NCBI GenBank assembly: GCA_038827615.1
Contig: JAWBNK010000001.1
Span: forward strand, 248,290-312,289
DNA length: 64,000 bases
From: Thermosphaera sp.
GTDB lineage: Archaea; Thermoproteota; Thermoprotei_A; Sulfolobales; Desulfurococcaceae
Reading direction: 5' to 3'
Positions 40,562 to 59,445 of this stretch are shown here, one piece after another. The notes beneath the pieces were generated by a model that saw only the letters and a list, made by a program, of their open reading frames with translations, had not been told where the DNA came from and ran no database searches. Every line of letters starts with the position of its first letter. Within the stretch, counting starts at the first letter, position 1. The translations under genes and the position numbers were made by a program.

Positions 40562-41625
40562 TTCTTCTCCCTCCAGGCTTTCAATATTCTAACTAGTCCT
40601 GGGATGGCGAGAACCATAATAATTATACCCTGAACAGCCTTAACCATTTCAAGAGGGACCCCGCTTTCTATCTGCATCCCGCGCGAACCCGCAGTCAAAG
40701 CTCCAACGAAAATCGCCGCGGGGATTATCGCCAGGGGATGGTTTCGGCCAATCAATGATACAGCCAATCCATCGAACCCCAGCCCTACGAGGTTCGATGC
40801 ACCGGTTGTTATGGCGTAGTGGGGAGGCCTCCCTGAAACCTCCATTACACCTGCCAGTCCCGCTAATGCTCCAGCGATGAAGAAGGAGTACAGCGTTGAC
40901 TTCTTAACGTTGATTCCACCATATCTCGCGGCAATGGGGTTCATACCTGTCACTCTTATCTCATATCCTATGCTAGTATGCCACATGATCACATATACGA
41001 TGAATGTGGCGATGATCGATATTATTATGCCTGCGTATAACTCGGTGCCCGGGACGAGTAGGGGTAGTCGCCCCTCCACGGGGATTTTGATCGTCCTCTG
41101 AGGCTCCAAACGGTCGAAGTAAACATAAGTCCTAGCATACTCTACTATCCAGAAGCCAATCCAGTTAAGCATTATAGTCGATACTACCTCGTTCACTCCT
41201 CTTTGTGATTTGAGGATCCCAGCTATTGAAGCCCATATGACGGCTAGAGAAACCCCGAGGACAAACTCTGCAAGCAAGTACAAGCCTTCGGGGAGAGGCA
41301 GTGAAGCAGCCATGATCGCCCCGAGCGCTGCCATGTAAACTTGCCCCTCTGCCCCTATGTTGAAGACCCCTGCTCTCACGCTCACGGCGAAGGCAAGCCC
41401 TGTCAGCAATAATGGTGTTGCAAAACTAAGGGTCGTTGAAATACCGTATAAGTCTCCGAAAGCGCTTTTAAACAATGAAATATAAGCCCGTAGAGGATCG
41501 TATCCTCCTAAGACCATTAACGCTCCTGAAATCAGAAATCCCGTTAAAACCGCTATTACGACTTCAACTATATCGTTCTCAACTCTACTTAAATCAGCGT
41601 TTTTAAACAAGGATTTAATTCCCAT
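40558..41625 (-). CDS. BMP-type ABC transporter permease (NupP/COG4603-like)
   Basis: This 355-residue polytopic permease has AVSVRAGVFNIGAEGQVYMA near residue 82 and GYEIRVTGMNPIAARYGGIN near residue 225, as in nucleoside permeases. The start overlaps the upstream ATPase gene by 11 bp. Gene order binding protein, ATPase, permease, permease is the classic Nup/Rbs-like arrangement. Confidence 0.9.
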   Translation of the reverse strand: MGIKSLFKNADLSRVENDIVEVVIAVLTGFLISGALMVLGGYDPLRAYISLFKSAFGDLYGISTTLSFATPLLLTGLAFAVSVRAGVFNIGAEGQVYMAALGAIMAASLPLPEGLYLLAEFVLGVSLAVIWASIAGILKSQRGVNEVVSTIMLNWIGFWIVEYARTYVYFDRLEPQRTIKIPVEGRLPLLVPGTELYAGIIISIIATFIVYVIMWHTSIGYEIRVTGMNPIAARYGGINVKKSTLYSFFIAGALAGLAGVMEVSGRPPHYAITTGASNLVGLGFDGLAVSLIGRNHPLAIIPAAIFVGALTAGSRGMQIESGVPLEMVKAVQGIIIMVLAIPGLVRILKAWREKK

Positions 41626-58942: not shown

Positions 58943-58991
58943 GTTTTCGTCTTCTATGTAAATCCCTAATACGTGAAACCCTCGTGTTAAT

Positions 58992-59001
58992 CTTTATAAG
59001 G
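58992..59001 (+). promoter_or_regulatory. TATA-like element for the initiator tRNA 5' segment
   Basis: CTTTATAAGG is centred near 58996, about 28-30 nt before the leader GGCGGGGC (59026-59033) that precedes the tRNA 5' end at 59039. Confidence 0.6.
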
Positions 59002-59038
59002 AATGTTTAGTAATCAAATAGAATTGGCGGGGCTAATC

Positions 59039-59100
59039 AGCGGGGTAGGGCAGCCTGGTAGCCCGCGGGAGACAGGCTTAGCCTGTCCGCGAAGCTCATA
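59039..59100 (+). tRNA. tRNA-iMet (CAT), 5' segment, with 24-nt BHB intron at position 30/31
   Basis: AGCGGGG (59039-59045) is followed by TA, the D arm GGGC-AGCCTGGTA-GCCC, G26 and CGGG (27-30). After an interruption (59070-59093) come G31 and CT-CAT-A, with anticodon 59097-59099. The intron has a perfect BHB: central helix CGCG/CGCG (59064-59067 with 59088-59091), 3-nt bulges GGA and AAG, then helix GACAGG/CCTGTC. A1 pairs with T72 of the 3' segment, and three G-C pairs sit in the anticodon stem, as in archaeal initiators. It is followed by sequence complementary to the 3' segment's leader. Confidence 0.88.
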
Positions 59101-59122
59101 AGGCGCCAGGCGGCCCAGCCCA

Positions 59123-59132
59123 TTTCATTTTT
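59123..59132 (+). terminator. possible T-rich terminator after initiator tRNA 5' segment
   Basis: TTTCATTTTT follows directly on the GC-rich arm of the inverted repeat, as expected for an archaeal RNA 3' end. Confidence 0.45.
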
Positions 59133-59299
59133 CCCGGTTGCGCGACACCATATTCCTGGTCAGTATTCAGGTAGGATCGGCGTGAGGATATTGAAACAAG
59201 CTTTTTCAAGACTTGCCACTTTAATCAATTAATCAATTGGGTTCTGACCAGTAGGTAGTTCCTGCAATCGTTTACTCTAACAGAGTCTTCCACGGTAAG

Positions 59300-59309
59300 G
59301 TATTTAAGG
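59300..59309 (+). promoter_or_regulatory. TATA-like element for the initiator tRNA 3' segment
   Basis: GTATTTAAGG, centred near 59304, lies about 27-30 nt before the arm of the inverted repeat that leads the 3' segment. Its presence inside what would otherwise be an intron argues for separate transcription. Confidence 0.55.
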
Positions 59310-59355
59310 ATGTTCAAGTAGTAAATAATGAATGGGCTGGGCCGCTCTCGGGGAA

Positions 59356-59413
59356 ACCCCGAGGTCGGTGGTTCAAAACGGGCTGTGCGCCCGTGAGAGT
59401 CCACCCCCCGCTA
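59356..59413 (+). tRNA. tRNA-iMet (CAT), 3' segment, with 22-nt BHB intron in the T loop at 59/60
   Basis: A38 at 59356 is followed by CCCCG (39-43), AGGTC, T stem GGTGG and loop TTCAAA (59372-59377). An interruption follows (59378-59399), then T60, CCACC, CCCCGCT (59406-59412) and A73. CCCCGCT pairs with AGCGGGG of the 5' segment and CCCCG with CGGGG of the anticodon stem. The T-loop intron BHB has central helix TTCA/TGAG, bulges AAA and AGT, and the internal helix CGGGC/GCCCG. Joined to the 5' segment it gives a complete initiator tRNA. Confidence 0.88.
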
Positions 59414-59445
59414 TCATGCCCGCGTAACAGCGGGCCCCGCCACTT
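59414..59445 (+). other. initiator tRNA 3' trailer complementary to the 5' leader
   Basis: The trailer holds a hairpin CCCGC (59419-59423)/GCGGG (59430-59434), then GCCCCGCC (59434-59441), which is the exact complement of the leader GGCGGGGC (59026-59033) on the other tRNA segment, followed by ACTTATTTT. Confidence 0.7.

What the first reader, a model, noticed from the sequence alone, without database searches (positions are those of the whole stretch)
59026..59441. Initiator tRNA-Met in two separated segments, probably a trans-spliced split tRNA
The 5' segment (59039-59100) and 3' segment (59356-59413) together make a complete initiator tRNA (A1-T72, CCCCG/CGGGG anticodon stem, CAT anticodon). 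They are 255 nt apart, far longer than usual archaeal tRNA introns. Each has its own TATA-like element at the right distance, a T-run follows the 5' part, and a perfect 15-bp complement flanks the junction. Split tRNAs are known in Nanoarchaeota and several crenarchaea including Desulfurococcales. The alternative is one transcript with a very long intron.
Basis: partly seen in the sequence, partly recalled or inferred. Interest (0 to 1): 0.9.

Follow-up and report, generated by a model that had tools for sequence, protein, structure and literature searches.

The report
Split initiator tRNA with its own promoter
The only initiator-tRNA gene of this heat-loving archaeon (Thermosphaera) is cut by a 255-base insert that carries its own promoter, so the two halves are very probably made as separate RNAs and spliced together; dozens of related genes show the same design, often with a mobile-DNA endonuclease gene sitting between the pieces.

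Summary
Exons 59039-59069, 59094-59100, 59356-59377 and 59400-59413 join into a 74-nt tRNA-iMet, letter for letter the uninterrupted iMet gene of relatives G021/G042. The 255-nt insert at 37/38 is absent from both congeners, Thermosphaera aggregans and strain 3507, and no second iMet exists in the genome. The split reading is well supported comparatively. Among 72 related iMet loci, inserts are either at most 62 nt or at least 139 nt. All 32 long inserts tested, at 30/31, 37/38 or 59/60, have a promoter-like element 34-44 nt before the 3' complementary arm, the spacing of ordinary tRNA promoters (score >=5 in 31/32; at most 9/32 in shuffled sets). The same geometry occurs in two relatives whose pieces lie on opposite strands, and in this genome's own split tRNA-Asp. 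Aeropyrum pernix tRNA-Asp, shown by northern blot to be two transcripts, is the direct precedent. New here: many of these iMet inserts carry LAGLIDADG endonuclease genes, one family per position. In this window the internal promoter is weak and the central helix imperfect. Separate transcription is inferred, not measured.

The parts
58987..59002 (+). promoter-like element (BRE/TATA) of the 5' half
   Evidence: PWM score 7.2, 52 nt before tRNA +1 and 39 nt before the leader helix; the same TTAATCTTTATAAG is present in both congeners
59026..59033 (+). leader strand of the leader/trailer helix; predicted start of the 5'-half transcript
   Evidence: GGCGGGGC pairs with 59434-59441; complement of at least 6 bp in 43 of 48 related loci, with changed but still pairing sequences
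59039..59069 (+). exon 1, tRNA-iMet positions 1-30
59070..59093 (+). cis intron 1 (24 nt, position 30/31), standard bulge-helix-bulge read by eye (GCC|CGCG|GG^A|GACAGGC .. GCCTGTC|CGCG|AA^G)
   Evidence: sequence; a 29-nt intron at the same position in both congeners
59094..59100 (+). exon 2, positions 31-37 with anticodon CAT
59101..59355 (+). 255-nt insert at 37/38 separating the halves; absent in T. aggregans (G002) and Thermosphaera 3507 (G001)
59110..59124 (+). 5' complementary arm (15 nt)
   Evidence: perfect complement of 59331-59345
59123..59132 (+). T-rich tract after the 5' arm, probable terminator of the 5' half
   Evidence: TTTCATTTTT; across 32 inserts the 25 nt after the 5' arm are 69% pyrimidine against 47% in the rest
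59295..59310 (+). internal promoter-like element for the 3' half (GTAAGGTATTTAAGGA)
   Evidence: score 6.4, 36 nt before the 3' arm
59331..59345 (+). 3' complementary arm; predicted start of the 3'-half transcript
59356..59377 (+). exon 3, positions 38-59
59378..59399 (+). cis intron 3 (22 nt, position 59/60 in the T loop), bulge-helix-bulge read by eye (TTCA|AA^A|CGGGC .. GCCCG|TGAG|AG^T)
   Evidence: sequence; same intron in both congeners
59400..59413 (+). exon 4, positions 60-73 (CCA not encoded)
59419..59441 (+). 3' trailer: hairpin CCCGC/GCGGG and trailer strand GCCCCGCC (59434-59441) of the leader/trailer helix
   Evidence: sequence

Best explanation
This is a split (trans-spliced) tRNA-iMet gene whose halves lie side by side on one strand. 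A 5'-half transcript (start about 59026, end in the T-rich tract near 59123-59132) carries exons 1-2 and a small cis intron. A 3'-half transcript (start about 59331, driven by the TATA-like element at 59295-59310) carries exons 3-4 and another small cis intron. The halves anneal through the 15-bp arms and the leader/trailer helix, present a relaxed bulge-helix-bulge at 37/38, and are cut by the tRNA-splicing endonuclease and ligated, as are the two cis introns. Shown here: exon structure, arms, promoter geometry, its recurrence across relatives, absence of another iMet. Inferred: separate transcription, termination, annealing and splicing. The insert belongs to a class of long inserts in iMet genes of this order, many of which carry a LAGLIDADG homing endonuclease gene. 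The present one is compact and ORF-less: either a derivative that lost its endonuclease gene or an independent splitting event; which of the two is not shown.
For: Spliced product equals the uninterrupted iMet of G021/G042. Single iMet in the genome. Insert sizes bimodal: none of 71-130 nt; 30 distinct inserts of at least 139 nt in 27 of 72 loci. In 32/32 long inserts the best promoter score in the 34-44 nt window before the 3' arm is >=3, in 31/32 >=5; the shuffled fraction >=5 is 0.106 and the best of 200 shuffled sets has 9/32; the antisense mirror position has 1/32. The matrix came from other tRNA genes of this genome, so it was not fitted to the inserts. Opposite-strand splits G054 and G037 have complementary arms of 11-12 bp and a TATA element 36-37 nt before the 3' arm (read). 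This genome's tRNA-Asp is a convergent split with 14-bp arms and a TATA element 39 nt before the arm, as published for T. aggregans (PMC3218864), so the lineage trans-splices. A. pernix tRNA-Asp has the same layout (121 nt, 37/38, internal promoter, 14-bp stem), with both half transcripts and no full precursor on the northern blot.
Against: No RNA data. The internal promoter is in the lowest fifth of this genome's tRNA promoters and hits of that strength occur about twice per kb. The 37/38 central helix is only C-G, U-G, C-G with an A-G mismatch, and predicted folding prefers a local hairpin CTCGGGG-AAA-CCCCGAG in the 3' half. Folded as one RNA the 416-nt region is also very stable (z -6.9), so a read-through precursor could be spliced too. 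The shuffle control keeps composition, not relatedness: some of the 32 inserts are near-copies of each other.
Confidence: 0.84

Rival explanations
1. One transcript from the upstream promoter with three cis introns, the middle one 255 nt long; the internal TATA-like element is chance or a remnant of a lost endonuclease promoter.
For: Both halves are on one strand in the right order; the whole 416-nt region folds far better than shuffles; the two flanking inserts are clearly cis introns; about two hits of this promoter strength per kb. An A. pernix read-through product was seen by RT-PCR, though not on the northern.
Against: The promoter element is at the same distance from the 3' arm in all 32 long inserts and in opposite-strand splits; inserts of 71-130 nt, too short for arms plus promoter, are absent; a T-rich tract follows the 5' arm.
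Confidence: 0.13
2. Both routes operate: separate halves dominate and a read-through precursor is a minor source, an evolutionary intermediate between intron and split gene.
For: This is what was reported for A. pernix tRNA-Asp; weak internal promoter here.
Against: Not distinguishable without RNA data; it overlaps with the best explanation and its probability is not exclusive of it.
Confidence: 0.3
3. The locus is a dead gene and another iMet serves the cell.
For: None found.
Against: All exons and both cis introns intact; spliced product perfect; no other iMet in a 99.98% complete genome.
Confidence: 0.01

Closest known systems
[quoted passage not shown]
   Same: Adjacent halves on one strand, joined at 37/38, internal BRE/TATA on the same strand, 3'-half start about 20-25 nt before the end of the intervening sequence, 14-bp G/C-rich stem.
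   Different: Different tRNA (iMet), longer intervening sequence (255 against 121 nt), two additional cis introns inside the halves, weaker internal promoter, relaxed rather than standard bulge-helix-bulge; no RNA evidence here.
Split tRNA-Asp(GUC) of Thermosphaera aggregans (same paper), also found here in the window's genome
   Same: Same genus, same junction 37/38, arms plus own promoter 39 nt before the 3' arm.
   Different: Halves convergent on opposite strands; the iMet halves are in line.
Split tRNA-iMet of Nanoarchaeum equitans (listed in PMC3218864 Table 1)
   Same: Same tRNA and same junction 37/38.
   Different: Halves far apart in the genome; no additional cis introns listed; unrelated lineage.
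Archaeal rRNA introns with LAGLIDADG endonucleases (I-DmoI type)
   Same: BHB-type junctions with endonuclease ORFs of the same fold at fixed sites, as in the relatives' long inserts.
   Different: Host is a tRNA gene; the insert also carries a promoter for the downstream exon, which I know of for no rRNA intron. The window's own insert has no ORF. No paper found in the held library describes LAGLIDADG genes inside archaeal tRNA genes.

Membership tests
split (trans-spliced) tRNA gene | Two gene segments that together give exactly one complete tRNA | tested here: met
   Spliced product equals uninterrupted iMet of G021/G042, ARAGORN tRNA-Met(CAT)
split (trans-spliced) tRNA gene | Separate promoter for each segment at the expected distance | tested here: met
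   58987 and 59295 elements; spacing conserved in 32/32 long inserts and in opposite-strand splits; score here modest
split (trans-spliced) tRNA gene | Complementary G/C-rich extensions next to the junction | tested here: met
   15 bp perfect, 59110-59124 / 59331-59345
split (trans-spliced) tRNA gene | Bulge-helix-bulge at the junction | tested here: inconclusive
   Relaxed form only: 3 pairs plus A-G mismatch, bulges UAA and AAA; minimum-energy fold differs
split (trans-spliced) tRNA gene | Halves transcribed separately and joined in vivo | not testable with these tools
   No RNA data
archaeal cis tRNA intron (insert at 37/38) | Short intervening sequence, 11-129 nt in earlier genomes (PMC3218864) | tested here: not met
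   255 nt; related loci have 62 nt or less, or 139 nt or more
archaeal cis tRNA intron (inserts at 30/31 and 59/60) | Short insert with BHB that leaves a perfect tRNA when removed | tested here: met
   24 and 22 nt; same positions in both congeners
LAGLIDADG homing-endonuclease insert | Insert encodes a LAGLIDADG protein | tested here: not met
   Longest stop-free stretch in the window's insert is 43 aa, no remnant by tblastn (best E 0.06); met in many relatives' inserts

The most novel reading that the evidence does not exclude
Split tRNA genes in this order are produced by mobile elements: a LAGLIDADG homing element inserts at 30/31, 37/38 or 59/60 of the initiator-tRNA gene, bringing complementary arms, a tRNA-type promoter for the downstream exon and an endonuclease gene, so that the gene is split the moment it is invaded; loss of the endonuclease gene leaves compact split genes such as this one, and inversion leaves opposite-strand halves.
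Probability: 0.5. Interest if true: 0.9.

Novelty: new variant of a known kind. Interest (0 to 1): 0.77.

Why it matters
Where split tRNA genes come from is an old question (primordial halves or recent breakage). Here the same essential gene shows the uninterrupted state, small cis introns, long endonuclease-bearing inserts with a promoter for the downstream exon, compact promoter-only splits and opposite-strand splits among related species, with the split state new within one genus. That makes a specific mobile-element route testable, and means that translation initiation in such cells probably depends on trans-splicing.

Tried and rejected
Homology between the 255-nt insert and endonuclease-bearing 37/38 inserts: no significant tblastn or blastn match; the GGCGGCCC-like arm similarity is not used as evidence because G/C-rich arms may converge. 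A Pfam call with wrong coordinates failed and was repeated with protein letters. PDB sequence profiles gave significant hits only for the 59/60 family (E 5e-8); for the other two, LAGLIDADG membership rests on motif and predicted fold (best Foldseek E 9e-5 and 5e-3), the 30/31 family being the weaker case. My constrained BHB energy contains mis-indexed T-stem pairs, so its value is not used. The exon coordinates printed were off by one or two bases and were corrected. A C/D-box RNA in the insert was looked for by eye only; Rfam has no match there at gathering threshold. The first searches for the tRNA-Asp 3' half failed on the assumed sequence; it was then read directly from the locus.

Full report
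WHERE IT IS. The window is G000:C1:248290-312289 of a 1.36-Mb archaeal genome, 99.98% complete. The two closest genomes, same genus, are G001 (1,305,106 bases, the length published for Thermosphaera sp. 3507) and G002 (tRNA-Asp 5' half starting at 41001, the coordinate published for Thermosphaera aggregans). The window is therefore from a Thermosphaera-like member of the Desulfurococcales.

WHAT IS THERE. Reading 59026-59441 gives four exons: 59039-59069 (positions 1-30), 59094-59100 (31-37), 59356-59377 (38-59) and 59400-59413 (60-73). Joined, they are AGCGGGGTAGGGCAGCCTGGTAGCCCGCGGGGCTCATAACCCCGAGGTCGGTGGTTCAAATCCACCCCCCGCTA, identical to the uninterrupted iMet gene of relatives G021 and G042, and called tRNA-Met(CAT). 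So there are three interruptions, not one: 24 nt at 30/31, 255 nt at 37/38, 22 nt at 59/60. The two small ones form good bulge-helix-bulge motifs, and introns of 29 and 22 nt sit at the same places in both congeners, which lack the 255-nt insert altogether. ARAGORN and the Rfam tRNA model both miss the gene, as expected for a gene in pieces.

NO OTHER iMet. Searches with each half find only this locus at E<=1 in the genome, apart from trivial matches of one arm to the other. The 45 tRNA predictions contain an elongator/isoleucine-type CAT pair (L002, and L026 with an intron) but no iMet.

IN-WINDOW EVIDENCE FOR A SPLIT. The insert begins and ends with 15-bp perfect arms (59110-59124 / 59331-59345). 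A matrix trained on 43 other tRNA promoters of this genome scores 7.2 at 58987 (gene promoter) and 6.4 at 59295, 36 nt before the 3' arm; ordinary tRNA promoters lie mostly 38-42 nt before the tRNA. By itself this is suggestive only: such scores occur about 2.2 times per kb. The T-rich stretch TTTCATTTTT follows the 5' arm.

COMPARATIVE EVIDENCE. An exact-match scan and searches of relatives gave 72 distinct iMet loci. Inserts at these three positions are bimodal in size: up to 62 nt, or 139 nt and more, with none between 71 and 130 nt. I tested 32 long inserts (nine ORF-less, 139-286 nt; the others 0.7-1.6 kb). All have terminal arms (mean 15 bp; 31 of 32 longer than in any of 50 shuffles). 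The best promoter score 34-44 nt before the 3' arm is at least 5 in 31 of 32 and at least 3 in all; shuffled upstream sequence reaches 5 in 10.6% of cases, at most 9 of 32 in 200 shuffled sets, and the mirror-image position on the other strand in 1 of 32. The 25 nt after the 5' arm are 69% pyrimidine against 47% in the rest. Near-identical inserts from sister genomes are included, so the number of independent cases is lower, but the pattern spans Desulfurococcaceae, Acidilobaceae, Aeropyrum and unnamed families.

POSITIVE CONTROLS. In G054 and G037 the 5' piece and the remainder lie on opposite strands, so no single precursor can exist; both have 11-12 bp arms and a TATA element 36-37 nt before the 3' arm (G037's 5' piece lies at a contig end, so an assembly error cannot be excluded there). 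The tRNA-Asp of the window's own genome is a convergent split with 14-bp arms and a TATA element 39 nt before the arm, as published for T. aggregans. In A. pernix tRNA-Asp, the same in-line layout (121 nt) was shown by northern blot to give two half transcripts, with only trace read-through by RT-PCR (PMC3218864).

HOMING ENDONUCLEASES. Many long inserts encode proteins with LAGLIDADG motifs, a separate family at each position: 30/31 (ORF antisense to the tRNA), 37/38 (sense), 59/60 (sense). Support: Pfam PF14528 at 1.3e-13 for 59/60; AlphaFold models whose best PDB matches are LAGLIDADG enzymes, E 8.9e-5 for 37/38 and 5.0e-3 for 30/31 (weaker). Not all long inserts fit: L162 holds a 463-aa ORF without the motif. 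No held paper that I found describes such genes in archaeal tRNA genes; subscription journals and preprints are mostly not in that library. The window's insert has no ORF and no detectable remnant, so its descent from such an element is a hypothesis.

MECHANISM. Most likely two transcripts, annealed by the 15-bp arms (predicted dimer gain -31.5 kcal/mol at 37 C and -17.9 at 80 C) and by the leader/trailer helix, spliced at 37/38 by the tRNA-splicing endonuclease and ligase, with two ordinary cis introns removed as well. Weak points: the 37/38 central helix has only three pairs and an A-G mismatch, the predicted minimum-energy fold is not the spliceable one, and the internal promoter is weak. 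Both transcription modes may coexist.

VERDICT. As a gene it is a new variant of a known kind (in-line split tRNA). The wider pattern, long inserts that carry a promoter for the downstream exon and often a homing endonuclease at three fixed sites of one essential tRNA gene, is the part a specialist would find surprising.

Noticed in passing
L244 (G000:C1 about 1030.75 kb): tRNA-Asp(GTC) of the same genome is a convergent trans-split gene with 14-bp arms GCACGCCCTTCTCC/GGAGAAGGGCGTGC and its own promoter for the 3' half.
   Followed up: yes
window 59026-59033 and 59434-59441; 43 of 48 related loci: The 5' leader and 3' trailer of iMet form a conserved G/C-rich helix whose sequence varies while pairing is kept (GGCGGGGC, GGGGCCGT, GGGAGGC, GGAGGGT), also in uninterrupted genes; role unknown.
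   Followed up: partly
L106, L107, L198, L226: iMet genes with two long inserts each (30/31 plus 59/60, or 37/38 plus 59/60), each insert with arms and promoter-like element: candidate three-piece tRNAs.
   Followed up: partly
L076, L111, L038, L036, L228, L232, L233: 37/38 long inserts are often followed by a further small intron of about 20-30 nt just downstream in the anticodon stem, absent from this window's gene.
   Followed up: no
L162:1837-3225 (-): A 1.6-kb insert at 37/38 holds a 463-aa antisense ORF without LAGLIDADG motif, so other genes can also sit between the halves.
   Followed up: no
G000:C5:1-440: An 11-kb contig carries a second tRNA-Cys (GCA) and a Leu-type tRNA that look foreign to the set on C1/C2; possible binning contaminant.
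   Followed up: no
G000: tRNA-Trp was not among the tRNA predictions at E<=1, so it too may be interrupted by a long insert.
   Followed up: no
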